From Jaapia argillacea MUCL 33604 (lineage: Eukaryota; Basidiomycota; Agaricomycetes; Jaapiales; Jaapiaceae), in the NCBI GenBank assembly GCA_000697665.1, contig KL197718.1:689099-753098 (forward strand): a stretch of 64,000 nt of DNA, written 5' to 3'. The number at the start of each line of letters is the position of its first letter. Positions within the stretch are counted from its first letter, which is position 1. Below are positions 4,452-36,057 of this stretch, piece by piece. The notes under the pieces were generated by a model that was given only the letters and a program-made list of their open reading frames with translations, was not told the origin of the DNA and ran no database searches. A program made the position numbers and the translations under genes.

Positions 4452-7400
4452 ATGGCTCATACACTTGTTTGGCGGAGCAAGTATCACTTCTATCCGATAG
4501 GAAATACCAGTGCCGTCTCGCTGACCAGGGATCTTCCTGCCCAAGAGGCTGCAAATATCTTACTGTTGGGATGTGGCGACCCTCGTAGCGTCTTGTACAC
4601 TATTGCCTCTGAGGGATCAAATTGTTTGTCATTTCACCTTGTTCGAAAATCATTGTGTTGAAACATTGGACAGCCGGCCGTGCCCTCGACTTTACTTGCT
4701 GCGATTTCGATCCAGCCGTGTTGGGTAACGTTATCATCTCATCGTCTCTCATCAGTCCCGTCCTGATCCAACCCATCCGTCCTTGCAGCTCGGAATGTCC
4801 TCCTGTTGACCATGGCGGCTGATGATCAACCCTGTGCGACCATGTGGAATATATGCTTCCATTTTAAATTGGATAAAGAATCCCATACCGCCCTTGTCGA
4901 CCAATGCAAAAAATTGATTGGACTCTCGGAGAGTCTCCAGGAATGGAACACTTCCACGTATGCTCCGTTCATCAGGATGTGTACCGAGTACACCCTCTCT
5001 GAACTTAGACGTCACTGGACGCTCTACGTCGATATGCAAGACTTGCCAAACTCACGGCTCGGAGCCATCCGTGATGGATTCGATCGTCAATCCAAACAAA
5101 ACGTCAAAATATACGCAAACACATTCACTGGTACACGATCCTTGGGTCCTCTTGGGATCAACGGGATAAGGGTCCTGAGCGAAAGTTTCAGAAACTACTG
5201 GAAGACGGGAGTGACCTCCACCGATAGAAAGAGCGTCGCAGCGGCGACCCTAATCAACCCCACATTCGTCTATTCTCTCGACGGAGAAAAGTTCTCCTTC
5301 CATTATGGATCGAATCCCTTCGACTCCTTCCACCTCGCCGCCTTGTTCGGAAATTCAAAGGGTACGGTAACGATGACAGAAGTAGCAAGGGCAGCGAGGG
5401 GTCAATTCACGGATTGGTGCTCATCTTATCGTATCTCATCTTCCTCCAACCCTCCACCCATCGTCCGTTTTTTCGTGGGAGACGCGACAGCTGCCTGTCG
5501 TGCCCTTCATGCATTCGATGCTACGGGGACTCTCAAACTGGGTGTCCCCGTCGCACAATGGAAAACGCAGTTGATTCAGCTCAGTGGAGACGAATATAGA
5601 CCAGGCGGTGCTCCTTTCAGGTTCAACGTCGTTGATACGTCGAATCTGGAGGATCACATCGGATTATTGAACGTCCTCATCGCTTCTGTTCCCCTCCTGG
5701 CCCCGACACTGACGAGTGTACTCTACGCCGAATCGCTCCTTATCTTGGGCAAAGACGCAACCAAGGAGTTCACGGAGCATTTACACGCAGACCCGACAGT
5801 CATTGGGATCCTCATCGGCTTGTGCCCCGTCGACTACCTGTCTGGGTTCACGACACGGTCCAACACGCACGAACTGATAATGCATCATAGTTTGAAGTCT
5901 GAAGTGTCGCAGTTCCACCAAGTTACCACTTGGAAGGCCCCCACCGCTGGCGATACTATCGCCTCTCAAGGAGCCGTCTTGGCACCTACCTTTGACGGAC
6001 ATCAGCTGGGGACGTTGTTATACGACATATATCAGTCGTTATTCGAGCAGGAGACTGCCATGAAATTTTGGAAGGCTAATCAGGGGAACTTGGCGAAAGC
6101 CATTGCTGCTTCGAATATGAGCCACTATACCCGCGAATCATTCGTTCTATTTCTGAAACTCGTCAGAGACAACCTTCGTCTCTCGGAGGAGGTGTGGAGC
6201 GAAGTCATGCAGAGGTTCATCGCTCTCGAATTGGCGGCTTGGTCTATCCAGTCGATGGACACATTGCACTACCAAGATTTGTGCGGTCAATTGAACCGAC
6301 ATGGGGTGTACAGACTTACATTCTTCAACGACAAAGCTCGGAGGATCGGTCGACTTGCGGCTTGGGAGACGATTCCCGACCTCGTCAGAATTGTCCTTGT
6401 TATCCCTCGCGAAAATTTAGCGGTGTTGGAGCATTCGAAGGCTGAGGAAATTGGGACTCCTCCATTACATTGCGACATATTCGGTCCTCGGTCTCTCAAT
6501 GTGTTCACTGCGATTCATGTTGCGTTTGGTAGGGCGATATCGATTGGGACCAAGTCTCATCCACGGGTCATCTTTGAAGAGGATCGAAAGGGTTGGGAGG
6601 GAGATTCATCACTCGTTGCATCTTTCACTGCACCAACTTGGATTCTTTCGGATCTCGACCCTCCAGAGGCGCTCAATATTGGGTTTAGCGTTCGGGATAC
6701 CCCTGCGGCGTGCGCTGCGCTCCAGAAAAAGTTGGGTCTTATTCTTCGCGTTTTCAGTGCTAGGCTCATGGATGAGTCTCTTGTCCATATCCTACCTGAA
6801 CCGGTTTTATCCACCAAAATACCCCGCCCTGCCCCATCGTATCTTCATTCTGAGGCGATGACTACTCAAATTGGAGAGTCTGGGGCTGCCGCCGTTGAGT
6901 TGGATGAACAGTGCGAGTTGATCACCTCCCTTGCTATTCGGGTATCAATTACGGATCAGCAATCGATCTCGTTGTTTGGTTCGAGCAAGATCGTTCCTCA
7001 AATTTCCCAGCTTTCACCTTGTGTTCTGAGAGTCGCGTTGGGAGATCGAACCCAGGATATCGCGTACCCGTTTCCCGTTTCTGGAAGTGCCCAGAGACTT
7101 CGGCTTGCTAGAAGGTCTTTATACATTGAGGTAAGCTGTTCTTCAGAGAGTATGGGTTCTGTGTCCTGAGTTTGTCGTTGTCGTAGGTTATCGTGCCGGC
7201 TTCTCACTCGTTGATGCCGGATGGAATGAAGCTCAATCCATTCCCCGTCATCAATACGAGAGAGTCGCTCAATACGTGGAGCATCCATCGGGTGAACCTC
7301 TCGAAACTACCCGTTCTCGATGTCAACGCAAAGAAACTTGGGGAATGGCTCAACCCACACGTCGGTTCCATGATGTCCGTCCGTGAACGTTCACTCCGGA

Positions 7401-8113
7401 AAAAGCAGCGGAGTGACGCTCTAATGTTTATCAAAGATACTTTGCACTCCATCTTCGTCCGCTCGTCGGGAATCCAGGGCGGATCTGTGCAAAGACTCTT
7501 CGCGCTACGTGATGAGAAGACGAACAATTGCGATACTGTGTTCTTCATCAGTGATTTGAGGTTTGACCTCTCGTCTCATACGATGATTTGCGATGGATAC
7601 GTACTCCCTTTGACGAAGAAATTGTTGTTGGAGATCGAGCAGCCTTTTTCGAAACTGGTCAATCAAGGGAATATGGAATACATTGGCGTGTTTGAAGGCG
7701 AGATGCAGTCCTGGAAACAGCTGTTGCCCGCTTTCGTTGAAAGGTGCCGATCTTCGTGGGACCACGGAAATAACTGTGAATACAAGGCCCAGGGTACAGT
7801 CCCGCTGACCGAGGAGATGGAGACCGATCCTTTGTGTAGTTGCGGAAGAGGTAAGGAAACCGAAGGGATGCAGAAAGTGGGACTGTGGAAGAAGTTGGCA
7901 CCATATGTTACCAGGGTCGCAATGTCGCCGTTGTTCGCGGTCTCATACCTCGAGACCGTTGGTCGCGATCCTGACGCTTACAAGTGCTCGGTATGTAGAG
8001 GGAGGGGGAAACCCAGGCTCAAGACGTGCACGGCTTGCAAGAAGGTACGATATTGTTCCACGGAGTGCCAGAAGAAGGATTGGAAGACGCATAAGCCGAA
8101 ATGCAAGCTTTGA
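4452..8113 (+). CDS. DUF4470 protein with C-terminal MYND zinc finger
   Basis: Four exons join in frame: 4452-4623, 4674-4724, 4789-7130 and 7187-8113, about 1,163 residues. The N-terminus carries the DUF4470 signature seen in many fungal and some animal proteins: KYHFYPIGNT, then NILLLGCGDPRSVLYTI, then LDFTCCDFDPAVLARNVLLL. The last block only appears when exons 1-3 are spliced. The extreme C-terminus is a MYND finger with regularly spaced Cys/His (CSVCRGRG, CTACKKVRYC, ECQKKDWKTHKPKC), probably binding two zinc ions and mediating protein contacts. The central 900 residues show no domain I recognise. DUF4470 has no settled biochemical role, so only the architecture is claimed. The start at 4452 is preferred over the internal ATG at 4806/4810 because it restores the complete DUF4470 block. 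Confidence 0.9.
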
Positions 8114-10168: not shown

Positions 10169-13100
10169 TCAGGCCCCATACACATCCATGAGCACCTCTG
10201 CGATTCCCGAATTGGGGTGTAGAATCGAAAAGTGAGTCCCCTCAAGGCTGTACACCTCCACAGTATCTGTAAACTTATCCAAATCAAACGCTTCCGATGC
10301 GCCTTCTGAATAGCTCTGGCTCCCAACACCATCGGTCCCCTTGATCAACACGGTCCGACTGGTAGGCCAAGGCTTCTCATAGGTCGTGCGGTCTGCACTG
10401 TTGATATAGCGTTCGTAGGCAATCGTGGCTCGGACACCGAGGAGGACGTGAGCCGTGTAGGCAGAACAGAACCGACGAATCCAGGCAGGGCCGGAGTCGC
10501 CTTCGGTGAAGTGTTTCTTGAACTGGGTGTGCAGATCGCCTGCACCCTCAAGGGCGTCAGAATTGACCATGTCCTCGACGATTTCCAAGATCTACGATGA
10601 GATAAGCTTGGGTATGGAATTCAGACGAGAAATGGGGCGTACATCTCCTCGAATGGAACCAGAGGCAATGTTGGCGAGAGTGTAGGCCTTGAATTTGGGT
10701 CTTTGGAATAGCGTTGGTGCACCGTCAAGCATGACGATCGACTCGACCGTCTCGCCCTGATCCTGAAGGATCATTGCCATGTCAAGGGCCAGTGCCGTTC
10801 CTATCGAGCAACCATCAATTCGACTGCTTCGAACAATGGCAAGGGAATGAGAAAGGGACCGACCGAAACTGAACCCAGCTAGACGATAAGGACCCTCCGG
10901 CTGCTTCTCCCTAATCTTCTGAGTATAAAATTCAGAAAGACGACGAAGTGTGCCCGAGATGGGTGCCTCCACAGTATCTTGCACTCCATATACGGGGAAA
11001 GGTAGCAGTTCGGCCATCTTTTGTAGGACAAGTACACCACCTCCGGCTCCGTGCATAATAAACACCGGCTTGCCTTCCGTGACTCGGTTGAGGCGGATAA
11101 CAGTGTTTCCGAGATCTTCTTGGAGCATGTCATTGGAGGACATGGGACCACCTTCGGTGACTTCCTTTAAGCTGGATGTAGATGCACTGTTGGCTTGCTC
11201 CTCGCGTATGACCTCGAGGCGACCAACTAAATGAGCCGGTACAGCGTCAGCGTTGATTCGAGTGAGCGACATAGAAGGTGCGTACCAGTCATGTTTCCTC
11301 CAAGCAGCTGCAGCTGGGTCACGTTAAGGTCAAAGTGGGCCTTGAGAATACCCGAAAGTCGAACTGAGGTCAAGGAATCCAGGCCATAACTCGACAGGGG
11401 AACATTGTCTTCAACGTCATTGATCTCGAGGGACAAAACCATGGCACAAGCAGCCTTGATTGTCTGCTCCGCAGCGCCCTTATCTGCGCCTTCGTTGGTT
11501 TCCTTGACCAACAAGTGTCGAAGGAGGGAGAGATGGTAGCTAGGAACACCGACTATCGAAGGGTTGTGAGATGGTGAACAAACAGGGTGATGGGAGTGGA
11601 CTCACTCTCGATGGTCTTCTTCCAGTTTGTGGGAGGAATGTACAAGGAGATTGGGTTGGCAGTACCGATTGACCAAATCGCCTCGACACAGTGGTGAGCG
11701 AGTTGGTATCCAGTCATACCCAATGCCTTATACTTGTCCAGCGCCGCATTCCTGGAGTTACCCTTAGGCATGCTTCGCACGAACACACCACCATCGGTCT
11801 TCAAATGAAAATCAGAGACCGCTTGTATAATAGCATAGAAGGGGCGCGTACTAAAGGAGGAACAGTGATAGTCGTTGCATTTGGTATCTTCGCCGCGATG
11901 GCCTCCATCCAAGTCTGGGCGCTAGTGATCAGAACAGACGATCAGCGAGGCAGATCATGGTTAGCAAATAGAATGTCACATACGCTGCGTAATTTGCTTG
12001 ACCAGGAGAACCTAAAGTTGATGCCATACTGGACGTAAGGACGATGAAGTCGACGGTTTCAGGATCTACAGCTTGTAGAAGGACCTGGAAGCCTCGAACT
12101 TTGACATCGTACACTAGCGATACACATAAGCACGGGAATGATAACGATGATCGTCAGCACTCACCCATCTCCCAGTCATTTGATGTCGTCATACTTGTGA
12201 ACTGCATGAAGCTGAATCAGACGTAATCCTGTCCAAAGATACCATGCAATCATACCAAAGCATCATTCAGACGAACTGCGACGTGGAAGATACCGCCGAC
12301 ACAGGGTAAGGACTCAAAAAGCGTCTTGGTTCCCTTGACATCGAGACAGTCGAGTGCAACAAGGTCGATCTTGACGCCAGGGACAGAGCGCAGGGCCACC
12401 AGAACCTTCTTCTCACGGATCAATCGACCGTCTTCGAAACCCTAAGAGGCAAGCATGAGCGGAGGAAGCGTACCACACATTAACCGACGCTTACCTTTTC
12501 GCCAGACCGCGAAGTGAGCACGATGTGTCTCGCTCCCAATTCGACTAGAAGTCGTGCAATAGCAACTCCCAGTCCTCCGATACCGCCAATCACAACATAG
12601 GCCTTGCGGGGATCAAACGCCTGGGTACCAGGGCGAATTCCACCCTTGAAAACAGGAACGTCGGGACTTTGAGTTTCAAAGTCGACGAGGAGACACCTAT
12701 CGGGTGCGGTCTCGGCGATCGCGTCCTCCAACCGATCCCCGTGATGTAATGTGACGACGGTATTTCGTGGAGCCAGCTGTGCCATGAGTTTTGATGGAAC
12801 GTTGGCTAGACACTCTCGAAGGCACATATCAGTCGCAAGGTGGTCGTATGACACCGAAATGAATCGCTGGGAGAACTTGAGATTGACCGGAGGTGTCACA
12901 TCTTCCGACCCAATGCAAACAATCGTGCCACGGGGATGGAGCAACGAGGCTGTCTCGCGCAGGATGTCATGAGTCGCATCGAACACGAATGCGTACCGGA
13001 AGCCCCCACGAGCTTGCTTTCGGAACGACAAAGACCATCCAGATACATTGTCTGAACGGACGGGGGCATCGTTTTTCCCAGACTGCGTAAATGATTTATC

Positions 13101-16100
13101 GAATGCTGGGTCGTCGAGAGTGACGCGAATTGACAAAGATTTATGAATCAGGGCACGGTAAACGGCGAATGAAGCAGGGGAGCCTTGACCAGCGTGAAGA
13201 AGAACTGCAGTTTCGGGAGGATGAGGGGGTTGAACGACATCGTTGACCAGGCTGGCCAACGTCAAGCGGCCCACCAAGGCAGCCGAAGAGAGCAAACTCC
13301 ACCGTTTCGGCAAGGCTGCAACACATCTGGCAGGACAAATAATGACATTTCCTTTGGGGGAAGGTGCCAGGCCGAAAACTCTGGAGTGAAATGTCAGACT
13401 ACTATGGTATAACGATGGGTAGTGGAAAGCATAGAGATTCACCTTGCGCCTAAGACATACTCAGAGTTATCAACCCCCGGGCCAGTGCCAACGATGACCC
13501 CCGAAAATTCAGAGCAGTTGGGGAACGTGGGCGATGCTGAAATGACAGACACCGCAACCTCAACATCATCAGCTCCGAGATGAGGAGGGAAACCTCGCCA
13601 CACGTTGATCCGCTGATCGTCGAGATCGAAATACAAGACATTGGCCTCTGCATTTTCAGTGACTGAAGGAGACGGAGCGGCAACGATCCGAGCCACTTGG
13701 ACGGAGCCATCTTCCTCTACTTTAACTTCAGCATCAATCCACGGGAGCGGCCTCAGTCGGGACTGGATGAAATCGTTCTGACGCAGTGACGACCAAGACG
13801 GTGGGAATAGGATAAGGAAGATTTTGAAGAGACTGAACTCGTGTCGCAACGACCGAGCGAGGCCGACGAGCGTGGCATTTTCAACTTCTGTAGTTGTATG
13901 AAGCCATATGGTATGCGAGAGGTTGGAGTCAAGGCCAGAGAAGAGGGAGACGAGTCGGAGTTCGTCTCCGCACACGAAGTGGATGATGAATGTCGTGGGA
14001 CCAGGTGGCGTCGGCAACTCTTGGCCAGCTGCCACTTCGGTCAAGGCGGCGATGATTTCTCCAGAAGCCAAAGGCGTGGGGGTGCGGGGTGGTGTAATTA
14101 CTGAAAGAGGTATCCCATCAACCTTCAAGACAGGGGTAGGCTGGACTTCGGGGGGTGTTCCTGGTTCACTATCACTGCAAAGGGAGAGGCTGCTTGGAGA
14201 CGATGAGCCACTTATTGGAAGGGAGGTTAGAGGGTCGGATGGGTTGTTGCGCTTTTGAGAGATGAACATCAGATGATCAACAACGTTGACACGGTTTTTT
14301 GCAACCCAGAAAGCGGTGGAAAAGTTGCACTCGGCAAGGACGTCCTGCCAGTCACTTCGATCTAATGTGCAGTGGGCGGCCGAGTGGCGTTCGTCCAAGA
14401 CACCGAACCATTCTCGGAAGCCACCAAATATCCCTGCGAAACGGATAAGGAGAGAGAAAATATCTGATTGAAGTTACTTACAATCCATCCCTGCAGATGA
14501 AGGCTCCGTGAGAAAAGACTGGAGCGGTGTGAAAGAATTACTTACAGACGCTACCGTGGCTATTAGAAGTGAACGCACTTCCGTCCAATTCCACAACAGC
14601 AAGGTACCCTCCAGGTACGAGAAGGTGGCGCAAGGTCGTCAATGTGTCGGTAATAGATGGGGTAGCGTGGATCACATCGAAGGCTGTGACGATGTCGAAG
14701 CTAGCAGGGTCCAGATTCTGATCGGCGAGGGGAACGGTGAGGTCGAGAGCCATGGGCGTCACCGTCATCCAAGGCGTATGTGCAGAGGCCTCTTGGGCCA
14801 AGGATATCGAGATATCCGTACAGACGTAGTCGACGTATACGCCTGTCAGACCAGCATCTACGAGTTCCTGACCCAAGAGGGCAGTCAGTCGACCAGTGCC
14901 AGCTCCGACCTCAAGCACGCGAATCACGCGTTTCCCACAAGCGGCAACGCGACGAACAAGGGCAACGAACTCGGATGCAACCTTCTCAAACACGGGGCCG
15001 CGGAATGGGCAATATTCGTAGATTCGGGACATAATGTCGTCTGTGAATAATAAATCCACCGTGGCCGTTGAGCTAGAACAGATTTCTGTATGGCTGATTA
15101 TGAGCAGATTGCAAATACCGTTAGAGATGGGGATGATTGACCTGCTTGACCCTTCCCAACGCGCTCCGAAAGTTCAAATAGAACGGAATACTTCTCCTTA
15201 AGTTGGGCAGGTACCTGAAGCCCGGCAGGCGGTCCTTCGGGGATTTTGGACGCTTGAGAACGGCACCATTGGAGATAGCGCTGACGGTCAGGGGTTGAAA
15301 CAGTAAAGTCGTGAGGCAACCGAGTCATCAGGTCTTGAGTGTAGCTGATGGCGAGTCGATCCAGAGTTTGCAAGAGTAATACCTCTTCAGACTTCGCAGA
15401 GACTCCATCCAACGACAAACCAACAAGACTAGTATCTTCAGGTACCACATATGGCTGCCATTCCATGGTAAAGCGATTCTTCGGCCATGGGGCACCTTGT
15501 TGTACTCGCTCAAACCTCAGACCTGGCAAACAGTGAGCAAATCATGGAATAATGGGGAGGAACCGACACACCTTCAATCGAGAATAAAACATCACCATTT
15601 TCAGCCAACAGGTATGCGTCAAGGACCCATGAATCAGGAGTCCATTCCGTCATCCTGGCGAAGACGGGGAACTCTTCTGGGAAGTTCAGGGGTAATGTAC
15701 TTCCATCATTACGGAATGCACGTTCGAGACTGTGGGGAAGTAAGAAATCTCGCTGGGCATCGCCGACATTGATCTTCTCATGCTGAAGATTCCAAACAAT
15801 GGCAGACTGAAGGCAAGCATCTACGATTGAAAAATCAGAGGGGAAAAGAGGAGGGCCAGCTAAAATACATACCAAGGATGGCAGGGTGTAAGTGATAGTC
15901 AGTTTGGTTCAAACCAGTAGATCCTTTGATCCAGCACAGAGCTTCTGTCTCGTTCGCAACCGCTCGATTGATGCGCATGAACCTGTAGCTCCAGGTGTCA
16001 GTTCATATCCGGTGAATGGGAAGCTGGACTGACTCAGGGCCAAACTGGGCGAATCCACTGATATCGTCGTATAGTTCATCACGTGTATGAGAATAAGGAC

Positions 16101-19100
16101 AACGCTCCATCACAGCTTCCACGTCGACGTGAGCAAGGCTTCGGGAACCGAGCTCGGGAATGCCATAGCCAAGTTTGCCCCAGGCATGTTGCACATCAAA
16201 CGCGGGAGCGCTGCTTGTCCAGGCCAAGTCACCTTGCATGGTTTCCAATCCGGTCGAGGATCTGATGGTGGCAAAGTGGCCATCCTTCTTCACCTCGATG
16301 GTGACAGCGGGGAATGAAGGATCCAGCATACATGCTGCCTCGAAGTGACAATCCCAGACCATAGTGACACCTGGGAATTCAAGTAACATTTCGATATAGG
16401 CTGCGGCTGGAATGATGTTGCTGTGGTCGATCACCTGGGAAAAAATGACTATGAGACGGATGGTTGGTGGAGGAGACAATTAACCTACGTGATGTCCCAT
16501 CCATTCTTCGGGCAACTGAGCACTGACACGTAACCTTTCGCTGTTCAAGGGGCGATGGCGAGGCAACTGCTTCATAACATGAGTTGGAACATTGGGAGCG
16601 AAAGGTCGGAACTTTTTCTGGAACGGATATGCTGGACCCTGCAATCTGGTTGGAGGGCATCCATTCAACTTAGCGAAATTAATCTGAGAATGAAAATCAG
16701 CAAAAGGGTCTCGTGACCTATGATCTTACGAACCGCATTGACACCACATAGCAGCAGCTGACCGAGAGATTCCAATAGAGTATTAACTTCAGTAGGCGGC
16801 TTGACCCCGGGCTTGAGGTGACGGGCAGATGGAGGACGTTTACTCCCAGCAACAACCTCGCTCGCCCCCAAGGTGCGCAGATACTGGGGGGAAGTTGTCA
16901 GGCATGTAAACAATTGTTCGTATTGTGTGGAACTCACGGCTGAAAGAACGGGATGTGGAGCAACTTCAATAAACGTGGAAGCCTCCCCATATTTATGAAC
17001 CATTGCAGAGATGGCAGGGGAGAACTTGACTGGTCGACGAAGATTTTCCCAGAGATAGTCAATAGTATACTCCTGGTTGACGAATGACCCGGTCACGGTT
17101 GACATAGTTGGAATGACAGGAACGTGAGGGCCGGGGTGTTGAGCAAAGATTTCTGCCAATTCCGCACGATATGGGATCTCGCAAGGATCCACGTATGGAC
17201 TGTGGACAGCGGTGCTGACCCGCAACTTTGTGGCTTTGACACCGTCAACCCAATTTTCGACGAAATTCGTGAGTTCGTTTACCAAGCTGCAGAGTTTTGG
17301 TCAGTGATATTGTAGCGTGGATCCAATGACGAGTTACTCACTTTTCGGGGCCAGACACACCGATATCCGTCGGGCTGTTGTAGGCAGCGATGTGTAGGGC
17401 ATCGCCAGGTTTGATGATTGTCTCCGAAGCTATGTCGATGGCGGCCTCAATATGATCCTGGACTGTCTGTGCATCTGCTCCAGAGAGGGCGACCATGGTT
17501 CCTCCGATAGAATCAACGATCTTCAGAGCACGACCACGAGCAATAGCAATCTTGATTGCCATCTGAAGATCAAGATATTAGCATGGAGCGGAATACACCA
17601 GAGGTAAGAAAACTCACTTCGCGAGGCATGGCGCCTGAAGCATATAAAACTGCTGTCTCTCCGATGGAATGACCGACAACAGCAGTGGGTTTCATACCAA
17701 GGGAGACAAGCAAGTCATAAAGAGCGATTTGGAAATATGCAATCCCAATGGAAATCACGTCAGCAGGCCACAGGAGCATAGTTTGGAGGGGTCGGCCCTG
17801 AGGAGGGTCGGACATGAACAACCCAGTTTCCTCTAAGAAGGACACTCCAGTATAATCACGGTGGACAGCGTCGGACGCCAAGATGCTCTCCCTGAACACA
17901 GTGTAACGATTGAATAATTCTGCGAAGATCGACACGAAATCAGGTGCTGCTCAGAATGATTGTGAATCATCGAGACTTACCTCGTCCCATGGCCCAGTGC
18001 TGAGGCCCTTGCCCCGAGAAACAGAAGATGAGGGGAGGAGGCCTCTTCGCAACGACAGCGGAATCTGGGAATTTCGCTTCCTCGATGGAGTCAGCGACGG
18101 CGAAACTCCTGAAGGGTGCCTGGCGTGCGCGAGAAGAGAGGTGCTCTGACAAGGCCTCAGGAGCTTCGCTTGCGTATTCGGAGCGGTAAGTGTTGATCAA
18201 GCTATTCACAGCCTTGGGTGACCATCCACCAACTGCGAAAAGGAAAGGTCCCTCTCGAGCAGAGCCATTATCGTAATCGGGAAGGGTGGGGCGCTTCTCA
18301 TGAGAGCGAAGAACAGTATGCCCACATGAACCTGAGGAAGTTGAGGATTAGCACAAACAAATCAGAACTTGTTTTTTCACTGACCTCCGAAACCGAAACT
18401 CGACACTGACACAATAGCACCCAATTCAGGTCGAGCGGGAATCAGCTTCTCGGTGGTGACTGGGACGCGGAGGTTGTATTCCTCGAAGTTAATCTTGGGG
18501 GAAGGCTTCTCGAAGTAGCCGTTGGGAAGGATGGCACCTTGCTCCAACATCATGACAGCCTAAAAGTTGCGTCAAATTATGATGTGCTGTTTATGGGTCT
18601 TAACAAGGAACCAACCTTGACAAGCGAGCTCATGTAAGCTCCCCTGGATCAGTCGTCAGCAACGTATTTTAAAACTTAAAACGAAACAGACAAACATTTC
18701 ACCGTGTCCAATATTGCTCTTCACACTCCCGATAACTATCTCTCTCCCATCCCTCCCCTCACTAAACACCGATCCAGCAGCGTTGGCCTCCAAAGAATCA
18801 CCGACAGTGGTACCAGTCCCATGAAGCTCAACAAAGTCAGCCATATAAGGCGCTAACTTCGCATCAGCATAAGCATTCCGAATAGCTTGGATCTGCGCCT
18901 CAGGGCTGGGAGTAGTGATGGATCCCATGAGCGAACCACAAGATGTAAGAGCAGTGCCAACGAGGACCGCATGGATATGGTCTCGATCCGCAATGGCGAG
19001 GTCGTGCCTTTTGATAATAACCGCCGATACTAAGGATACGGTCAGAAAAGGTTTTCAGGAAAGAATAGCGAAGTGATACTCACTGACGTCACCACGGGCG

Positions 19101-20092
19101 TAGCCATTGGCACTTTCGTCGAAAGACTTTGAAATACCATCGGGACTGAGAACTCCAAGTTGACTGAAACTGGAAGTCTCCAAAGGTCCGAGAATTAAGT
19201 TGACACCGGCGACGACCGCTTGGTCACATTCGCCGTTCCTGACGGCTTGTGCAGCCAAATGCATCGCAGTAAGCGATGAAGAACAAGCTAAAAATCCCCC
19301 AAAAATCATCAGCAAAAATCCCGCAGAACCAAAAGATCTCAACGCAATAATACTTACCAGTATCAACGGGGAGCGAAGGGCCCATCATGTCAAACACGAA
19401 TGACACCCTGTTGGCAGTGATCGATAATGACGTGCCCGTCATATAATACTCTCGGCACTCGGTAATATCGAGTTCACACGTAGCTCCTCCACCTGCACAA
19501 CCGACGTATACACCGGTGGTGGTGCCGCGGAAATCGACGCCAGAGCGCTGGAGAGCATTGAAAGCTTGATGAAGGACGTTTGCTTGAGTTATGGCGATTT
19601 GAGCAGCCTAAGAAGAACGAAGAAAAATAAGCATCCGAAGTAATGATTTCGGTAGAGGGGGCATTTACCTCGGCGGCAGCAACACCAAACTCCTGGACAT
19701 CAGTCATACATATATCCGGGATGAAACCTCCCTTAGTCTACAATATAAAAGCAACCATCCGGTTGAGTTCCAATAAACAGGATGTGAAAGAGAAGTTATA
19801 CGAACGGTACAGATTTGACCGGGGCCAGTGCCATAGTAAGCATCAGCGTTCCAGCGCTCCGTGGGCACCCTGATAGAGCCGTTACCGCGTTTGGTGAGGA
19901 ATTCAAAGAATTCGACGGTGTCGAGGCCATGGTCGGCGTCCTCTCCTCCCGGAGCGGATATGGACATCCCTATAGGACGGCGGTGAGCGGGGACGATACG
20001 ACATAAAGAAGTCACTCACCGACGATCGCCAAGGCGCGAGGGTCGGGATTGGTATACGAAGGAGGGGGAGCAGGCTTTGAGAGTATTGCCAT
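10169..20092 (-). CDS. Reducing iterative polyketide synthase (KS-AT-DH-MT-ER*-KR-ACP-TE)
   Basis: The gene has more than 20 short introns and encodes roughly 2,800 residues from the ATG at 20092. Domains run from high to low coordinates. KS, about 20.06-18.4 kb: start AIVGMSISAPGG, then active-site DTACSSSL split by an intron, HGTGT and SNIGHGE. AT, about 18.05-16.67 kb: GHSIGE and TAVHSPYVDP. DH, about 16.6-15.5 kb: WMGHHVIDHSNIIPAAAYIE and DACLQ. C-methyltransferase, about 15.5-14.1 kb: SAM motif VLEVGAGTGRLT. An ER-like medium-chain reductase fold, about 13.9-12.66 kb, with VFGLAPSPKG but a degraded cofactor loop. KR, about 12.65-11.6 kb: GGIGGLG, then LTSSMAS and NYAAY. ACP, 11.51-11.29 kb: GLDSL. 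TE, about 11.25-10.17 kb: GFSFG, MLDGAP and a C-terminal EGTHFSIL His. KR and DH look active while ER does not, so the likely product is a conjugated, partly methylated chain released by the TE. Exon borders are approximate. Confidence 0.93.
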
Positions 20093-22012
20093 TGTGAATC
20101 GCCTAAGAGTGGGGTGGCGAGGATTGGATAGAGGTGAGATGGTCCACGAGAGGCTCAAATTCTATGAAAGAAGTAGGCGCTCGGTGGTGACTTTGACGAT
20201 AAAGAAGCCCTCATATAAGTACATGTCTCGGGGGTGGGAATGCGAAGCAAAGTTGTGGTTGGCCTCCGCCTGCGAGGTGAATTCGGGCAGAATGAAGGAG
20301 GCAGAGGTGATGCGAAGAACGGCGCATGGTGTTTCAGGTACGAGGGACGGGAATCTGATGCTGATTCTGATGATCTTCATCAAGAAATCGTGAACGCGAG
20401 GGAATTCAACGACGCACTAGCTCGGAAATGAGACAACGGAGCCGAGGCGGAAGTCCGGTCCACACTTTCACGTTGAGATTTGGCCATTGCTAGAGGATCG
20501 CTGTATTTTCGGTGCAACGGCAAGGATCAGTTGTGAGAAATGAAACGAAAGATGTTGGCAAATGTTCGATATCTTCACATCTACTAAGCATATGGACATC
20601 ACTCACAAAAGCAAAGTCTGAAGGCCCTCCGGTCGGGATCTGAGGAGAAGTTGCGAACCACCGCTGTCACGCGCTGTCACAGACCATCACATTCAACCAC
20701 ACTCCGACAAAGTGCGACGCCGTGTAGCACCCCACAAAACGATCCTTCAAAGGCAGCCGCTGTCGCCAGTGTACGAGATCACCAACTCTTCAGAAAAGAG
20801 TATCCCAGCAACCCAAAAATGGAGCGAAACCCTTGATTTCTGTTTCATTGCGAGGGGGAGGGGTGGAAATACAGAACTCGCACAGCCAGCTCAGGCATCT
20901 GCGTACACACGCCTCGGTTCGAGGTACGAAGTCTAACAGGGGCCGAACGGTCCCTTATCATGCTGAGTACCGAGATCAGAAGTAGTCGACACCTTCGGAT
21001 CGATCGAGGGTACTCACATCTTCGCTCAACGAGGCTCAATCAATGTTCATGTTTGATGATCATGATATCTATATTTGTGTCCCGGTGCGAGGTAACCATG
21101 ACCTTAAATGCCGTGGCAGATACATTGAAGCCTGGAGTGCCAGTGTGAGTATAGACGAGACAAAATAAATTTTGGAGACCTTTTGGGGACTTTTCCTGTA
21201 CATGCTATCGGTGTTCCTCGGAGGGCCCACTTCAGTCAACCACAAAGCTCTGAAGGTCCCAGGGACACACCCAGCTCGTGAGCGTACCGAATCCAAAAGA
21301 CACGATTGGAGACGAGCTCTGTTCGCGCCACGTGGCTGCACGATGTAGCCGATCTGAAGCTAGGGACACCAAGTGATTGCCTCGTACAACCGGCAATCTT
21401 GTCTATTCTTGCTCGAAAAGTTGAGAATACACAAACTGACCGGCAGGTTGCATGTATCGACTACTGCGGTACTCTCGGGAGGAAATGAGCCGAGATTCTC
21501 CCAAATGAGGGGCGGCCGTTCAAGATGAAGCAAGTTAACGCAACAAGACGGTATGAGGCGGATGTAGAGCTTGATGTTGTGGATCGGGGGATTGTCGCTT
21601 GCGAGCATATGGCGACGAAGGAATAAAGTTGATGGAACCATGATGGTGAGAATGAACGAGGTGACGGATGCGAGGAAGCGAGGAACGGAGCCTATCTTTG
21701 GCGCGGTTTTGGGGTCCTGCATGGCCATCAGTGATCTACATCCCAACGCTTCTTTTTTCACCTCCATCGTTACAATGTTCCTGGGGCCTTGTTCCTTCAC
21801 TGGCAGCACCAGTGAGAAATACTACGAACGTTCCACACGGCAATGAACATATCCAAACTCTGGTGTCTCACGATGCTGCTAGAGTCGACATCATCTGGAC
21901 CTCGCCTTCAAGTTGAGGCTCATCTTGAAAGTACTAGTACCGATAGGAAAGCCTCGATCACGGTCCGCGCAGCCCTAAGTCCCTTGCTCCAGCATTCACC
22001 GTCACCAGAGGA
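20093..22012. promoter_or_regulatory. Divergent intergenic region between synthase and oxygenase
   Basis: About 1.9 kb separates the synthase start (minus) from the oxygenase start (plus), so both could share control sequences. The longest internal frame (minus, 21360-21809) is hydrophobic in part but has no recognisable domain and no convincing exon partners. I see no obvious palindromic operator that I would name. Confidence 0.45.
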
Positions 22013-23790
22013 ATGCGTCTCCGCTTAATGTCTTCCTTGACCTCCAAACCTCTCCAAGCTTCAGGTTGCGCAATCGGTTTCGAAAATGCCGTCGAGCAAC
22101 TTGAGCCCATCGCTCTCCGTGTCAAAGGCGAAATTCCTCCATGGCTCCGAGGGAACCTCTATCGTACGGGACCTGGTACATTCAGGGTCCCATCTACCGC
22201 CTCTCCCACAGGCTCAGTCGACCTAACACACTGGTTCGATGGCTTGGGCATGACACATCGTTTCGAAATCACCACGTCTGGTAGTGTCATGTACAGGAAC
22301 CACTCGACTGCAGATGGGCTAAGGAAACGTATTGAGAAATCAGGGGTAGTCCCCGGTGTCACTTTTGGAGATCAGGATCCCTGTGAAACCATCTTCTCCA
22401 AATTCTTTACCATGTTCAGACCCAAGGTCGAGACACCTCCAAAACCTATCGAAGGCGCTCCCGACGATGTCAATATTCAAGTCACCCTCACTCCCGATAT
22501 GCCGGGCTTTGCATCACATCATTCCATCCCCTCATCTGCAACCAAAGCCACCCCTCGCTACCTTGTAGCCAAGAGCGACAATGACACCCTCCAAATCCTG
22601 GATCCCGAGACTCTCAAACCTCTTCACGCGACCACTTACGCTGAACTCGACCCGAGGCTTGATGGCCAGATCAGCGCAGCCCACTCTTGTCGCGACAAAA
22701 CTACCGACGAGTTCTACAACTTCTCTCTAAAGATGGGTGGAAGGCCTGTATACAAGGTCTTCAGAGTTAGACCCAACGCATCTTCTGAGAAGGGCTTCGA
22801 CGTCGATGTGTTGGCTGAGATCAACGACGCTCCTGCCGCTTATCTTCACTCGTTTGTGATGACGGAAAAATACGTCGTACTCTGTGTTTGGCAAGCCGAC
22901 TTCAAGTAGTAAGTTCCGTCTCCTCCTATTGTATCTCATCCGAACCTAACGGAGACACCATCAGTTTCGGAGCAACAATCCCTCTAAACCGCAACATCGC
23001 GTCCTCACTCGAAAAGAAATGGAACCCAAACCGTTCCACCCTCTTCTACGTCATCGACCGCCACTCCGGTGGCCTCGTCTCCAAATTCAAATCCGCACCA
23101 TTTTTCTGCTTCCACGCTATAAACGCCTATGACTCGGGCTCCGACGACATCACGATTGATCTCTCTGTATACGACGATCACTCAGTCATTGACCTTTTGT
23201 ACCTCGAGAATTTGAGGAACCTCTCAGCTGAGAAACCTATGAAAATGGGGAGGGCTAGGAGGTTCGTTTTGGAAAAGGTGTCCACTCCGGGTGGGAAGGG
23301 CTCGAGAGAGGCTACGATCTCATTCACTCTACCTCAGAGCTCGAGTGTCGAGCTCCCCACAGTTCATCCAGCGCTGTATCACAAACCCTATCGTTTCGCG
23401 TACGTCTCTTTTCCTCAGGTTACCCATGGATGATCGCCTCACAGACACTCTATTTGATATAGCTATGGGATGAACAAGCTCGACCCAAAGACCCATCACA
23501 CCTTCGCAGATCGTCTAATCAAACTCGACATGTCCCAACCCGAATCCGAGCCGAGGACTTGGAGCGTGCCAGGATACACGCCTGGCGAGCCCATATTTGT
23601 CCCCCGTCCAGGGACCACCTCGTTGGGGGATGCAGAGGATGACGGTGTGGTGCTGAGCTTGGTGTTGGATGGAGAGACACAGAAGAGTATGCTTGTTGTG
23701 TTGGACGCGAAGGAGATGAAGGAGGTCGCTAGGGCGGAGATGGAGACGCATTTCCCGTTCGCGTTTCATGGGGTGTTTACGCCCAATTGA
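22013..23790 (+). CDS. Carotenoid-cleavage-type dioxygenase (RPE65/CCD family)
   Basis: Three exons join cleanly: 22013-22908, 22965-23399 and 23463-23790, about 552 residues. Introns are 22909-22964 (GTAAGT/CAG) and 23400-23462 (GTACGT/TAG). The family N-terminus is clear (EIPPWLRGNLYRTGPGTF). The four Fe(II)-binding His of the seven-bladed propeller are all present: ISAAHSC, YLHSF, FCFHAIN and PFAFHGVF. Conserved acidic second-shell regions also look intact, so the enzyme is probably active. Family members use O2 to cleave double bonds of carotenoids, apocarotenoids or stilbenes. The substrate cannot be read from sequence. A second in-frame Met (22028) is an alternative start. It is divergent from the polyketide synthase and convergent with the MFS gene 210 bp downstream, which hints that its substrate may be the synthase's polyene. 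Confidence 0.93.
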
Positions 23791-24000
23791 AGGAATATCC
23801 TCGTACATTTGTACCACCAGGTCAAGTTCGAGATTATGCAGTCCCGTTTTCTGATTACACCCAGACTCGAAGTTTGTTACATGTTATATAGTCAGACGAA
23901 TGCTTTGGACATGACTTGGCGTCAAATCAACTCAAAGCTGGGACATATTACTTGGCAATACATACAACAAGTATCCATCCCAAACCCTACCAGCCAATTA

Positions 24001-25996
24001 TCACGACGAAGTCGTACCACCGTTCCCCTCCTCAACCTGGCCCGAGTTCTCCTCTCCTTTCTCCCTCCTAACAGCCATCTCTTCCCCATCCTCTTCCCTC
24101 GTAACAGCAGCACCCACCTCCGGGAAAATATGCTTCAACCCCAAAGTCGACACAGCCCCAACACCAAACCAAACCGCCACAACAACAAAAATCAACGAAT
24201 ACGCAGAACTATAAGCTTCCTTCACGATAGCCTGAGACTGGGGATCCAAAGAAGGTATAACAACCGTCGGACCCTGCATGATCCCAGCCCTAACACCAGG
24301 GTTCGCAAACACCTGCGAAGTCAAAGCAGCAGCATCAAGCTTCTCAGACACCCGAACATTAACAATAGCAGTGGAGATAGCAATCCCAATCAAACCTCCC
24401 AACATCCGACTGAAAGACTGGAACCCAGTAGCAGTAGCCAAATCCTTCCGATGAACACTAAATTGGATGATGATGGTCGAAACGGTGATAGTGACTCCAA
24501 TGCAAATGCCTTCGATGACTTCATACCCGTACATCCTTCCGAAATTGGTGTTGGTGCCTCCACCACCGTTGATGGTGGATAACAGACCAGCACCGATGGC
24601 TCCGAGAGCAGCTGCGATGCTCATTAACGGGCGGTAAGATTTGCTGAGCATTACAGTCGCGCCTGCGAATGGACTAAGGAGTCCAGTTGGTAAGAGGATA
24701 GGGAGCATCTTCACGCCTGCTCCGATTGGACTAAGGGAGTCAACGATTTGTAAGCGCTGAGGGAGGAAGACGGTGGTTGAGTAAAGGGCGGCTCCGAGGC
24801 AGATGGTGTAGATGATCATGAGGTTGAAGTTAGGACTGGGAGGGACAGGTGTTACTTCTTGCGTAGAGTCGGACGCTGAGGCGGAGGAGGACCGGAAAAG
24901 ACGAAGAGGGAGGATGGGTTCGGGGTGTCTCGTCTCGACCCACAGGAAAACTGGGATCAAAGCAACCGAGATTGCGAGGGGAGCCAAGACTTTCGCAGAG
25001 ATCCACGGATATCCAGGCGTTCCACCAATTTGTAGCTATGGTTAGAATAGATTAGTGTAAAATCAGGGTACGGCGATGTAGAGACTGACCGATAGGGCCA
25101 ATAGGACGGCACACGCGAGTAACAGGAATGAACCAATCCAATCGATCCTTTTCTTGAGATCTCTCAGTTTAATCTGGGCTCTAGACGCGGGATATTCGAG
25201 GAAGAGCTGGAGCATCACAGCCCCGACAAATCCGATTGGCAAATTGACGAAGAAAATCCAACCTGAAAAGCAATTTCGATGTATCAGCGTCTGCTCAGCC
25301 TTGAGTACAAGAGCAAACAAACCCCAATGAACATGCTCTACGATTGCTCCTCCAACGAGCGGACCAGCAACGCTGCTAAGAGCAAAAACAGCGCCAATGA
25401 TGCTTGTATATTTGGCAACACTTTCTTGGGGAACCATAGTGGAGATTGTGACCACTACTCCAGAGTAAATCGCAGAACCTCCAATCCCTTGAAGAGCTCG
25501 GAAGACGATAAGTTCAGTCAAGGACTTGGCACCCCCACAAGCGCCTGAAAACGCCTATGAAATCACATTAGCCACAATTCAAGAGTGAGAAATGACACGT
25601 ACCATGAAGAAGATGGTGGAAACCAACAGGACATATTTACGGCCGACGATGTCAGTCAACTTTGACACAATGGGAAGGAAAGCTCAACGGCCGGGTCAGT
25701 GGGGGAAGAAGTAGTATGACGAGGACGGACCTACCCGTATACGTGATAATGTACGCAGTCACCACCCAACTTGTTGACTGGTAATCATTAAAGTCAGAAC
25801 CAATTTTCGGAAGTGCGACAGCAACTTTCAGAAGGCAAGGATTGGAACTCAGGAGGCACTGGATAATGAGGGGGAGCTTACCGATGGTTGAATCGAGTGC
25901 CGATATGAACAATATGAGTGCAAGGGCAGTCGACACAAGGATCCTCCGGTTAGCTGGTACATAGTAGTCGGAGTCGTTGTGGGGAGTGGCCGCCAT
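24001..25996 (-). CDS. MFS exporter, DHA2-like (14 TM)
   Basis: Six exons fit: 25996-25882, 25824-25735, 25682-25603, 25554-25323, 25262-25090 and 25035-24001, about 574 residues. Sequence features of drug:H+ antiporter-type facilitators are visible: an N-terminal TM start (ALILFISALDSTIVAVALP), the loop motif DIVGRKYVLL, the TM5-type FRALQGIGGSAIYSG and PLVGGAIVEHVHWGWIFFVNLPIG. The C-terminal half has the extra hydrophobic segments expected of 14-TM members. The tail after the last segment is charged (EEDGEEMAVRREKGEEN), likely cytosolic. Such pumps often export the product of an adjacent secondary-metabolite cluster, which fits the polyketide synthase and oxygenase next door. An alternative ATG lies 9 bp upstream (26005). 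Substrate unknown. Confidence 0.92.
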
Positions 25997-27604: not shown

Positions 27605-30600
27605 TCAACCTCCAATCTCACCAGCTCTACACTCCAGAACAACCTCAACCAGCTTCGCAGCATCGGCCTCTCCAAGCCCCGCATCCCTAAACCCAAATTT
27701 CCAAACACTAGGATCTTCGAAACTCAACGACTCTCTCACTCTCGCAAACCCAGCCGAATTCAAACCCCTATCACTCAAGAACTGATGGATGGGCTCGGGG
27801 AATTGAGATGCGGGATTTGTAGGGTGATAAGCTGGTGGTGGCGGTGGGACGTTGGCCTGGGCCTCACTGCTAACTTCATCACCTTCCAAAATGGATTGGT
27901 GGGAGATGGAAGCGGTTGGAGAGAGAGGTCTGCCGGGCGAATACGAAGATGCAGTGGCATCTGGAGGGAGAGGTGGTAAACTGGATCGACGAGAAACCCT
28001 GGAATGAATAGACTGGTCGGACAAGATAGACGACGTGGACGGAGCTCGTGAAGGGCCACGAACGGATGGAGGGCGCGGTAGAGGAGATGGTCCCGTCACC
28101 CGTACCGAATTCCCACGTGATGACGATGGTGACGTAAGGAGTGATGATTGGGTCGAACTTCGACGGGAAGACATAGAGGGTATTGTGTGTATTGAAGATG
28201 GGATAGACGGCGTTGGTGAGGGTGATCGGTCGCTTTCAGCTAGGCTGGACGCGAGTGAAACGTAAGGAGGGATGTGTGGAGAAGGTAAAGACGCCTCTGG
28301 GGGTGTTGACGGAGCTGGTGGTCGGGTTTGGGTTTCTGCTGGGCAGAGGTCAGAGTTGGTCGAGGTGTTACAAGAATGGGGTAGGTTAGACTTGCCTCCG
28401 TGGACACTGCGAGGGCTGGAAGGCGTACCTTGTGCGGTCCGAAAACCTTCACTGCCAGTTGAGGGTGTTACATCCCCATGCGCAATCCCGTTGACCACAA
28501 CGTCTCTCGCCTCGACTCCAAGCCCACTTCTCAGGGATACTGCATCAAAATCACCCCTGAGAGACTCGGTCTCAAAATCACCTCTGACATACCCTGCAAA
28601 GAAGTCGTCCCTTGTAGGCTCGGCGTCAAATCCTGCTACTCCAATCTCGTCTCGATTCAAACTTCCACCTCTGACACTACTATCATCGCTTCTACCCTCT
28701 TCCCATCTTTCCCTCTCAACTTCCCTCACCCTCGAAGGAAAGCTCTCGACGTGTGGTAAACCGATCTCCCTCTTCAACACTTCCACAACCTCTTCCAAAG
28801 TCTCTCTATACTTCGGGTTCATCTTAAACTGTCTGGTAGTGACTAGCTTGACTTCCATGCGAGGTGGGATATGGGGTGTATTTGAATCGTAGATGGGCTG
28901 AATCACAATGCCGGCAAAGAGGGCGTCTGTCAGACGGGCTAAGCCTGTCGCCTACACCCAGATAGCGAGTTTAATTCACGCAAGGCTTAAAGGAACGAGC
29001 AACCACTCACAGCATCCCAGATATCATTGATCCCTTCCTCACTCGCATCCTCCCTATCCCTTCCTTCGCTCAAAAAATGCATATGTAAACCCCTCTCACA
29101 TTGCTCATCTCTATCCTGTCTGACATCCAATCTCTCTTCGAACCTTTTCTGATCACATTCACGTTGCGAAGGTCGGTCGGGACGGAGGGAGTGGATCCAC
29201 GAACGGAGGGCTAGGGGGCCATAAGGAGCAATGCGCCGGGAGGCTCGGCGAGTCAAAGTTGGAGAGTGGGCAGAGTGATGAGAGTGACTAGAGTGGAAAG
29301 AATGGACAGAGGGTGTTCTTGATGTTATTGAGGGTGTAAGGCGATGATTCCGAGAGGACGAAGACGAGGAGTTGGGTAAGGGTGGGGAAGACGACCCTGT
29401 CGGTGTCTGTTGGTGTGCGTCATGTGCGTCCTGTTGACGCTTCTGTTGGTGGGATGAGTGCGGTCTGAATGCATCTCGTAGAATTTCTTCGGCTGGCAAG
29501 ACTGGGCCGTAATCGACTGCCCTTGGTCGATTCGCTGAGGAACGAAGTAATTCTTGAGGGAAAGCAGATGGGAGTTTCTTTCCCGATAGGACCCTGTTGA
29601 TTAGATGTATCGCTATAGCTAGACCCTGGGGTGATAAACGACCCTTCTTTCCAGTGTCTGCTAGATCCCTGCCCAATAGAAACCGCATTAACCTCCAAGT
29701 TGGGAGTGCGAGAGGGTAAGGTGATACTCACCAAACTTTGATTAGAAGGTCATCATTCAGCTTAGATCTCCTCATGAAAGGCACGGCGACCTCCCCGATG
29801 ATATAACCCTTCCCTTTCGGGTCCAGCACGTCAAAACATCTGTCGCTCCGGATCCGCTCTTCCTCAGTGATTTCCCATTCGCCTCCTCCTTCTATGGGGT
29901 GTTTCGCTTGTTCGTAGACTTGAGATGGGAGGCATGCGGGTATAGTGGTGAGGACTCCGGAGGTGCAGCATCGGATCAGATACATGGCAACTGCGAAATC
30001 CGCCGAGTCCAGAGAACCGCGTTTGCGTTTATCGGAGAGTGCCCATATTTGTGTGAGCTTATCAACTGGAAGTTTCGACTGGACTAGTATGTCCCTGGCC
30101 TTCTCGCCTGAACCAAAGTGCAGAGGATAGTATGAGAACTAGCAGTGATCTTCTCCGACGAGGAGAGTTAGCGCACCACTCAAAAGTCCGTTGATGGGTA
30201 TTGCGTCTTCAAAAATCTCCAAAAATCTGGTCTTATCGTGGGACGTCAATGGTGGCAAAGTTGGAGACACGCCGATGATGTAGGGCAGCGGTCCTGCTGG
30301 AAGACGAGTGCCCAAGTTAGAACACAGCCTGCCCCGAAATATCCCTTCTCGGAAGGACATACGTTCATTGAGCAACTTCCTCGAGATCCTCTCACCCCGC
30401 TGGGCCCAACCCATCAATCTCACAGCGGCAATCGTTTCCCTCTTGGTCAAGCTCCCACTTCTGTTGGAATCCGCCACTGCCCAAACCTGGGACAGCACCT
30501 CTGGCGATAAATTGGACCCACCAAATAGATCTAGCGCCACTTCACCCACCAACATACCCAATTTTTGGGCTACTGGATGGGCGAACATCTTGTCAACAAG

Positions 30601-30633
30601 GACGAGCTCTTCCGGAGTTGGAGACAGCGACAT
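27605..30633 (-). CDS. EH-domain protein with three EH domains (paralogue A)
   Basis: EH1 begins at the ATG at 30633 (ELVLVDKMFAHP ... LSQVWAVADSNRSGSL). EH2 appears after splicing near 30.1 kb (KARDILVQSKLPVDKLTQIW, then ALSDKRKRGSLDSADFAVAM). EH3 follows (RCFDVLDPKGKGYIIGEVAV, then ADTGKKGRLSPQGLAIAI). After a Ser/His-rich linker comes a block conserved with paralogue B (ECDQKRFEERLDVRQDRD and LHMHF). Then come TDALFAGIVIQP, TRQFKMNPKYRETLEEVVEV, a long Ser/Pro linker, and a conserved C-terminal module (EPIHQFLSDRGL, WKFGFRDAGLGEADAAKLV). EH domains bind NPF peptides and usually act in endocytosis; three EH domains recall Ede1/Eps15, but the C-terminal half is not the usual Ede1 form. First-intron position and phase match paralogue B. 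Exon borders were inferred by eye. Confidence 0.85.
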
Positions 30634-30887
30634 GAGGGTACAAGGGAACGTGTGCCGTGAACGTTGTTGTTATCGAGGAAATAGCCTAGTAGGGACTTTA
30701 GGCGCTGCATGCTGCCAAGTAACTCTGAGACTCGGCGAAAGTCACTGCGTAGTAGTAAATTCATAACAACTGTACAGCTGCGAACGTCCAGCGCTTATGT
30801 CGAAGTTTGCCTCGAGCCCATCAAACATGCTCGGCTTCCGAAGGTAGAGCGGCTACGGGCAGTACGCTTTTCTTGTTCCGCACCTCC
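30634..30887. promoter_or_regulatory. Short bidirectional promoter between EH paralogues
   Basis: Only 254 bp separate the two start codons of the head-to-head EH genes, so their promoters must overlap. The segment has no clear TATA box. Confidence 0.5.
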
Positions 30888-35269: not shown

Positions 35270-35333
35270 GGTGGCCACTGAGATCTGAGAAGTGAGAGTA
35301 GGAAAGGCTGTTCTGTTCAATAACATCGTTTCG

Positions 35334-36047: not shown

Positions 36048-36057
36048 CGACAGTTCT

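What the first reader, a model, noticed from the sequence alone, without database searches (positions are those of the whole stretch)
10169..25996. Candidate cluster: polyene-type polyketide synthase with a carotenoid-cleavage dioxygenase and an exporter
Seen: a reducing PKS with apparently active KR and DH but a degraded ER, divergent from an RPE65/CCD-family oxygenase with all four Fe-binding His, then a 14-TM MFS pump. Known: a reducing PKS with no working ER tends to make conjugated double bonds, and the CCD family oxidatively cleaves polyene (carotenoid) or stilbene double bonds. Basidiomycete reducing PKSs that make conjugated polyenes have been reported. Inference: the CCD homologue may cut the polyketide polyene, giving aldehyde products, instead of a terpenoid carotenoid. 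That pairing would be a new use of the CCD fold. The plain alternative is a retinal- or stilbene-forming enzyme that is only a neighbour.
Basis: partly seen in the sequence, partly recalled or inferred. Interest (0 to 1): 0.82.

Follow-up and report, generated by a model that had tools for sequence, protein, structure and literature searches.

The report
Polyene synthase beside a carotenoid-cutting enzyme
A mushroom-type fungus carries, side by side, an intact enzyme that looks built to make long coloured polyene acids, a relative of the enzymes that cut carotenoids, and an exporter, which suggests but does not prove that the cutting enzyme trims the polyene and would give a first genetic lead to a family of fungal yellow pigments of unknown origin.

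Summary
The CCD does not look stilbene-cleaving (about 20% identity, outside that 100/100 clade). It falls with archaeal carotenoid-type CCDs, nearest Nitrosotalea NdCCD (33%). No opsin, carotenoid-pathway or aldehyde dehydrogenase gene was recognised in what was scanned, which is part of the window. No fungal genome could be searched, so synteny, fungal CarX/CAO-2 kinship and expression are untested. Indirect support: a mushroom is reported to have a CAO-2-like CCD but no carotenoid synthesis genes (PMC8865532). The best reading, that the CCD cuts the polyketide polyene to an omega-oxo polyene acid, is about 50% likely. It would give a testable genetic candidate for calostomal/boletocrocin/corticrocin-type pigments, whose fungal biosynthesis a 2025 paper leaves open (PMC11727611).

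The parts
10169..20092 (-). Highly reducing polyketide synthase, KS-AT-DH-MT-ER0-KR-ACP-TE, 31 exons, 2752 aa
   Evidence: Curated splice model, 30 of 30 introns GT-AG, no internal stop; Pfam domains
12495..13450 (-). Approximate stretch of the degenerate enoyl reductase region of the PKS (GGVG lost, Lys column not Lys), followed by the start of the KR
   Evidence: Alignment to SpnB ER 3slk, E 2.5e-5; the ORF piece gave an ADH_zinc_N match below Pfam's cut-off, and KR
14546..15085 (-). Exon with the SAM-dependent C-methyltransferase domain of the PKS
   Evidence: Methyltransf_12 E 1.6e-14 on the ORF piece, 3.8e-13 in the whole protein
10169..11226 (-). C-terminal end of the PKS after the ACP, with the thioesterase domain (GFSFG, Asp, His)
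   Evidence: Thioesterase E 4.1e-18; in-frame intron 10801-10863 resolved
20093..22027 (.). 1.9-kb intergenic region between the divergent PKS and CCD genes
   Evidence: No gene model above my score threshold; no shared promoter motif above the control trio
22028..23790 (+). RPE65/CCD-family non-haem iron oxygenase, 3 exons (22028-22908, 22965-23399, 23463-23790), 547 aa
24001..25996 (-). MFS exporter with 14 hydrophobic segments, 574 aa in the curated reading
   Evidence: MFS_1 E 2.8e-41, TRI12 E 3.3e-13; 14 hydrophobic segments; two in-frame introns removed by eye

Best explanation
A small polyene-pigment gene cluster of a basidiomycete. The synthase makes a linear, methyl-branched, conjugated polyene acid: KR and DH act each round, the ER is dead, the methyltransferase acts near the starter end, and the TE releases the acid (shown: the parts; inferred: the product, by likeness to LpaA/PPS1). 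The divergently transcribed CCD uses its four-His ferrous centre and O2 to cut one double bond of that polyene, giving an omega-oxo (aldehyde) polyene acid and a short methylated methyl-ketone piece from the starter end (inferred). The MFS pump exports the product (inferred). A cut between acetate units of an unshifted chain, at C16=C17, would leave the C16 heptaene omega-oxo acid known as calostomal; with the shifted double bonds of LpaA/PPS1 odd-numbered oxo acids (C15, C17) are expected instead.
For: Intact PKS model with the LpaA domain order and a degraded ER (PMC7473843, part 1 of 5 and passages). CCD intact with all four His. The two are immediate divergent neighbours, with an exporter next on the CCD side, and no gene model lies between. 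The CCD is on the carotenoid-type, not the stilbene, side. No phytoene synthase, desaturase, cyclase or opsin was recognised among the gene models and frame segments scanned. CAO-2-like CCD in a mushroom reported to lack al-1 and al-2 (PMC8865532 section 14; that paper says nothing of a PKS beside it). Oxidative cleavage of an unsaturated chain of a fungal pathway is a real step, by another fold, Fma-ABM of fumagillin (PMC11727611 passages).
Against: Only one genome: conserved linkage untested. No shared promoter motif above the control trio. The CCD groups with archaeal carotenoid-type enzymes and fungal retinal-forming references were not available, so a plain CarX/Cco1 orthologue is not excluded. 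The organism's own carotenoid genes could not be looked for. [quoted passage not shown] No aldehyde dehydrogenase was recognised nearby to make diacids. The shifted double bonds of LpaA and PPS1 do not fit even-numbered C14/C16 pigments without a further change.
Confidence: 0.5

Rival explanations
1. The CCD is an ordinary retinal- or apocarotenoid-forming enzyme (CarX/Cco1/CAO-2 type) that serves an opsin or carotenoid pathway elsewhere in the genome; the PKS is only a neighbour.
For: Best match among solved structures is the archaeal 6vcf, named carotenoid cleavage dioxygenase, E 3e-64; clade of 6 with archaeal CCDs, support 100/99. A basidiomycete retinal-forming CCD, Cco1 of Ustilago, is known (PMC5133782 passages).
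Against: Reported ascomycete retinal clusters carry phytoene synthase/cyclase, desaturase and an opsin with the CCD (PMC6941272, PMC5561558 passages); none of these was recognised in the parts of the window scanned. One mushroom with a CAO-2-like CCD is reported to lack al-1 and al-2.
Confidence: 0.27
2. The CCD acts on the PKS product but as a breakdown, turnover or self-protection enzyme, not as a step towards the exported product.
For: Laetiporic acids are antifungal (PMC7473843 abstract), and an exporter lies next to the CCD.
Against: Nothing here separates it from a biosynthetic role.
Confidence: 0.1
3. The CCD isomerises polyene double bonds (RPE65/NinaB-like) rather than cutting them.
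For: A carotenoid isomerooxygenase and RPE65 are among the closest solved relatives; laetiporic acid A occurs with a cis C7-C8 bond.
Against: LpaA alone gives the cis/trans set in Aspergillus (PMC9893682 passages); RPE65 acts on retinyl esters (recalled).
Confidence: 0.05
4. The CCD cleaves stilbenes or lignostilbenes.
For: Same fold; fungal CAO-1 does this (PMC5133782 passages). Weak PDB matches: 5v2d at E 1.7e-7 and lignostilbene dioxygenase chains at E 1e-4. A Lys (K182) stands one residue before the LSD Lys column.
Against: Chains 5u8x (CAO1) and 5j53 (NOV1; names recalled) are not among the 22 PDB sequences matched at E 0.001, whereas a Sphingobium control hits both; about 20% identity to 3 LSD-type rows; the LSD Lys column reads Ser in 6 of 6 MAFFT settings; outside the 100/100 stilbene clade.
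Confidence: 0.03

Closest known systems
LpaA (Laetiporus) and PPS1 (BY1) polyene synthases
   Same: Domain order KS-AT-DH-MT-ER0-KR-ACP-TE, dead ER, near-equal length (2752 here, 2729 LpaA)
   Different: Sequence identity could not be computed (sequences not held); here a CCD and an MFS pump adjoin it; LpaA is described as sufficient on its own and the passages I read name no CCD neighbour
NdCCD (Nitrosotalea) and haloarchaeal CCDs
   Same: 33% identity to NdCCD over 471 aligned residues, four His, same clade
   Different: End branch 1.39 against a median of 0.6; Asp for the conserved Glu in the ALxE motif; extra loop of about 20 residues before it; spliced gene beside a PKS
Fungal CarX, Cco1, CAO-2/CarT carotenoid oxygenases
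   Same: Fungal member of the same Pfam family; reported fungal relatives cut long polyenes to aldehydes
   Different: Published clusters seen hold carotenoid and opsin genes, here a polyene PKS; direct comparison impossible, sequences not held
Fma-ABM (fumagillin) and Lim18 (limocrocin)
   Same: Oxidative cutting of an unsaturated chain to a new acid or aldehyde end, described as verified for Fma-ABM and proposed for Lim18
   Different: ABM monooxygenase family, unrelated to CCD (recalled)

Membership tests
Basidiomycete polyene synthases (LpaA/PPS1 type) | Domain order KS-AT-DH-MT-ER-KR-ACP-TE | tested here: met
   against PMC7473843
Basidiomycete polyene synthases (LpaA/PPS1 type) | Inactive ER, catalytic Lys replaced (Gly in LpaA and PPS1) | tested here: met
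   GGVG lost; Lys column reads Ala against both 3slk and 8g7w, on weak alignments; which residue truly replaces Lys is uncertain
Basidiomycete polyene synthases (LpaA/PPS1 type) | High sequence identity to LpaA/PPS1 (they share 68%) | not testable with these tools
   Neither sequence is held
Basidiomycete polyene synthases (LpaA/PPS1 type) | Makes methyl-branched conjugated polyene acids | not testable with these tools
   Needs expression
RPE65/CCD family | Full-length RPE65 profile match | tested here: met
   E 9.5e-107, profile 4-469 of 469
RPE65/CCD family | Four Fe-binding His | tested here: met
   H219, H274, H344, H541; His in all four columns also in 12 of 13 other rows, the Gloeothece row having Arg at the third
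RPE65/CCD family | Second-shell Glu in the ALxE motif (role recalled) | tested here: not met
   Asp184 (VAKSD) in the window, Glu in 13 of 13 other rows, in 6 of 6 MAFFT settings; a conservative change; whether it is common in fungal CCDs could not be checked
Stilbene/lignostilbene-cleaving subgroup | Lys in the L-K-E-D motif (role recalled) | tested here: not met
   Ser183 at that column in 6 of 6 MAFFT settings; Lys in 3 of 3 LSD-type rows. Lys182 is one residue away, so a one-residue shift would change this
Stilbene/lignostilbene-cleaving subgroup | Groups with LSD/NOV enzymes | tested here: not met
   14-row tree, LSD clade of 3 rows 100/100 without the window; window in the archaeal clade of 6, 100/99
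Fungal retinal-forming CarX/Cco1 type | Groups with CarX/Cco1 | not testable with these tools
   No fungal CCD sequence of that type held
Fungal retinal-forming CarX/Cco1 type | Linked opsin and carotenoid genes | tested here: inconclusive
   None recognised in the gene models and segments scanned, but only 20 of 174 outlying frame segments were scanned, and such genes need not be linked
MFS drug exporters of 14 helices (DHA2-like) | 14 transmembrane segments and MFS_1 match | tested here: met
   14 hydrophobic segments; MFS_1 E 2.8e-41; GPLVGG core of motif C read in sequence (motif recalled)

The most novel reading that the evidence does not exclude
A carotenoid-cleavage-type dioxygenase has been recruited to a polyketide pathway and cuts a PKS-made polyene, discarding the methylated starter end and leaving omega-oxo polyene acids; this is the missing genetic logic of the fungal calostomal, boletocrocin and corticrocin pigments.
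Probability: 0.3. Interest if true: 0.85.

Novelty: new variant of a known kind. Interest (0 to 1): 0.6.

Why it matters
If the CCD cuts the polyketide, a fold known for carotenoids and stilbenes gains a third substrate class, and the polyene C14-C16 oxo- and diacid pigments of mushrooms gain a concrete two-gene candidate that can be tested by expression in Aspergillus. A 2025 paper leaves the fungal route open and reports that bacterial limocrocin proteins find no similar sequences in available basidiomycete genomes (PMC11727611). It would also explain why a mushroom reported to lack the first carotenoid genes keeps a CAO-2-like enzyme (PMC8865532).

Tried and rejected
Search of the window's own genome: none held. 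Related loci of the CCD: 1 in genome contigs, NdCCD itself, of 22 stretches matching a pattern; 0 in viral contigs, of 65. PF03055 in the phylum of that archaeon: 1 of 151 genomes, and that one is the NdCCD genome. Relatives on plasmids: 74 records, 60 listed, of which I fetched 10 as outgroups; the hosts listed are bacteria and archaea. Shared promoter motif among the 900 bases upstream of PKS, CCD and MFS: 25 shared 7-mers (shuffle mean 12.2, maximum 23) and 4 shared 8-mers (mean 0.98, maximum 5), but an unrelated control trio shared 67 and 15; rejected. Stilbene cleavage: disfavoured. Bacterial precedent: the words 'oxygenase' and 'carotenoid' do not occur in the Rhodococcus polyene paper's main text (PMC11563203). 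Literature for a CCD with a polyene PKS: ten searches; no listed title or start of abstract, and no passage that I opened, links the two. The listings are capped and this library lacks most subscription papers, among them the PPS1 paper and the review and NdCCD papers I tried.
Full report
What is there. The window comes from a eukaryote with many 48-70-base introns; no genome is held for it. That it is a mushroom-forming basidiomycete is inference, from the likeness of the PKS to LpaA and the intron-rich genes. The finding's coordinates, 10169-25996, are the outer ends of three intact gene models. I built the models with a small codon-usage and splice-site program, then corrected junctions by hand where domain motifs were broken. 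The PKS model has 31 exons, 30 of 30 introns GT-AG, one open frame of 2752 residues from 20092 to 10169. The CCD has three exons, 22028-22908, 22965-23399 and 23463-23790, 547 residues. The MFS gene runs from 25996 to 24001, with two further in-frame introns read by eye. These are models; no transcript was seen.

The synthase. Pfam finds ketoacyl synthase (both halves), acyltransferase, dehydratase, methyltransferase, ketoreductase, carrier and thioesterase domains in that order. No Pfam enoyl-reductase domain passes E 0.001 in the whole protein; a 268-residue stretch between MT and KR still matches solved ER domains weakly (SpnB 3slk, E 2.5e-5), and there the GGVG motif reads GSPA and the Lys column reads Ala (that this Lys is the catalytic one is recalled). 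The order KS-AT-DH-MT-ER0-KR-ACP-TE is that of LpaA (2729 residues), described as the sole enzyme needed for laetiporic acids and shown in two Aspergillus hosts; in LpaA, as in PPS1, the ER Lys is replaced by Gly (PMC7473843; I saw the first of five parts and passages). Whether the present enzyme is close to them in sequence could not be computed. A later paper expects the LpaA methyltransferase to act after two condensations, so the methyl sits near the starter end (PMC9893682, passages).

The oxygenase. It matches the RPE65/CCD profile end to end (E 9.5e-107). All four Fe-binding His are present. Its best PDB match is the archaeal carotenoid cleavage dioxygenase 6vcf (NdCCD; E 3e-64), then a carotenoid isomerooxygenase, RPE65 and beta-carotene 15,15'-oxygenase chains. 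Stilbene-type chains are weak: 5v2d at E 1.7e-7, lignostilbene dioxygenase at E 1e-4, and 5u8x (CAO1) and 5j53 (NOV1; names recalled) are absent from the 22 sequences at E 0.001. A Sphingobium enzyme fetched as control hits all of these at E 8e-84 or better. In a 14-row alignment the window CCD is 33% identical to NdCCD, 28-33% to four haloarchaeal enzymes and about 20% to three LSD-type rows. The tree puts it with the five archaeal rows (100/99) and outside the LSD clade (100/100); its end branch is 1.39 against a median of 0.6, its place inside the archaeal group is unresolved, and three rows, NdCCD among them, have a deviating letter make-up. The rows are a small, hand-picked set: 10 of 60 listed plasmid hits out of 74 records, NdCCD and two PDB chains; no fungal CCD could be had. 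The stilbene Lys column reads Ser, and the conserved Glu of the ALxE motif reads Asp184 where 13 of 13 other rows have Glu; both hold in 6 of 6 MAFFT settings, though Lys182 stands one residue away from the stilbene Lys column.

The exporter and the surroundings. The third gene is an MFS protein (MFS_1 E 2.8e-41, TRI12 E 3.3e-13) with 14 hydrophobic segments. The cluster is flanked by a DUF4470/MYND gene and two EH-domain genes. Among the gene pieces and models scanned by Pfam and 20 frame segments, no opsin, phytoene synthase, desaturase, P450 or aldehyde dehydrogenase appeared. The 20 segments were chosen from 174 listed outside 4.8-34 kb, and two models at 36435 and 41796 were not scanned, so a missed gene is possible. 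No shared upstream motif was found above the control trio.

What it most likely does. A PKS of this build should give a methyl-branched conjugated polyene acid. A carotenoid-type CCD next door is then well placed to cut it. Supporting context from papers: Taiwanofungus camphoratus, a mushroom, has a CAO-2-like dioxygenase while lacking orthologues of al-1 and al-2, so its CCD has no evident home-made carotenoid; the paper does not place that gene beside a PKS (PMC8865532, section 14 read whole). The fungal CCD clusters in the papers I opened are carotenoid-opsin clusters (PMC6941272 and PMC5561558, passages). Cleavage of an unsaturated chain by an oxygenase is described as verified for Fma-ABM in fumagillin biosynthesis, another enzyme family (PMC11727611, passages). 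The same paper says that genomic data are lacking for the producers of boletocrocin, calostomal, verpacrocin and corticrocin, that bacterial limocrocin proteins find no similar sequences in available basidiomycete genomes, and that the fungal route remains to be studied. It calls calostomal aldehyde-featuring; its structure as the 16-oxo C16 heptaenoic acid is recalled. A cut at C16=C17 of an unshifted chain would give it and throw away the methylated end. Against this, LpaA and PPS1 shift their double bonds into the acetate units; a cut there would leave odd-numbered chains, so the calostomal link needs an unshifted product.

Limits. All evidence for the functional link is neighbourhood and family likeness in one genome. 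I put 0.5 on the CCD cutting the PKS product in a biosynthetic step, 0.27 on a retinal or apocarotenoid enzyme that is only a neighbour, and the rest on degradation, isomerisation, stilbene cleavage or something not listed. Piloderma croceum is a promising test case, as it makes corticrocin (PMC12441137, passages); that its genome is public is recalled.

Noticed in passing
34686-42132: Three copies (95-99% identical) of a block coding an Ala-rich coiled ORF of about 104 aa, plus a 300-base repeat at 100% identity 5361 bases apart next to a 190-N gap at 35334-35523: recent duplication or assembly artefact.
   Followed up: partly
4767-8113: Probably one gene with DUF4470 and a C-terminal MYND zinc finger.
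   Followed up: partly
27605-34238: Two EH-domain genes head to head, possibly a divergent duplicate pair.
   Followed up: no
22028-22908 (CCD residue D184): The Glu of the CCD ALxE motif is Asp (VAKSD) here and Glu in 13 of 13 other aligned CCDs; effect unknown.
   Followed up: partly
50594-52296: GH5 glycoside hydrolase gene (Pfam Cellulase E 3e-27).
   Followed up: no
L005 (Gloeothece verrucosa plasmid) 2959-4377: Cyanobacterial CCD whose third Fe-binding His column reads Arg, beside two genes annotated as tryptophan 7-halogenase.
   Followed up: no
L008 (Streptomyces sp. HUAS 31 plasmid) 2941-6590: CCD followed by genes annotated as aldehyde dehydrogenase and enoyl-CoA hydratase: a possible alkene-cleavage catabolic operon.
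   Followed up: no
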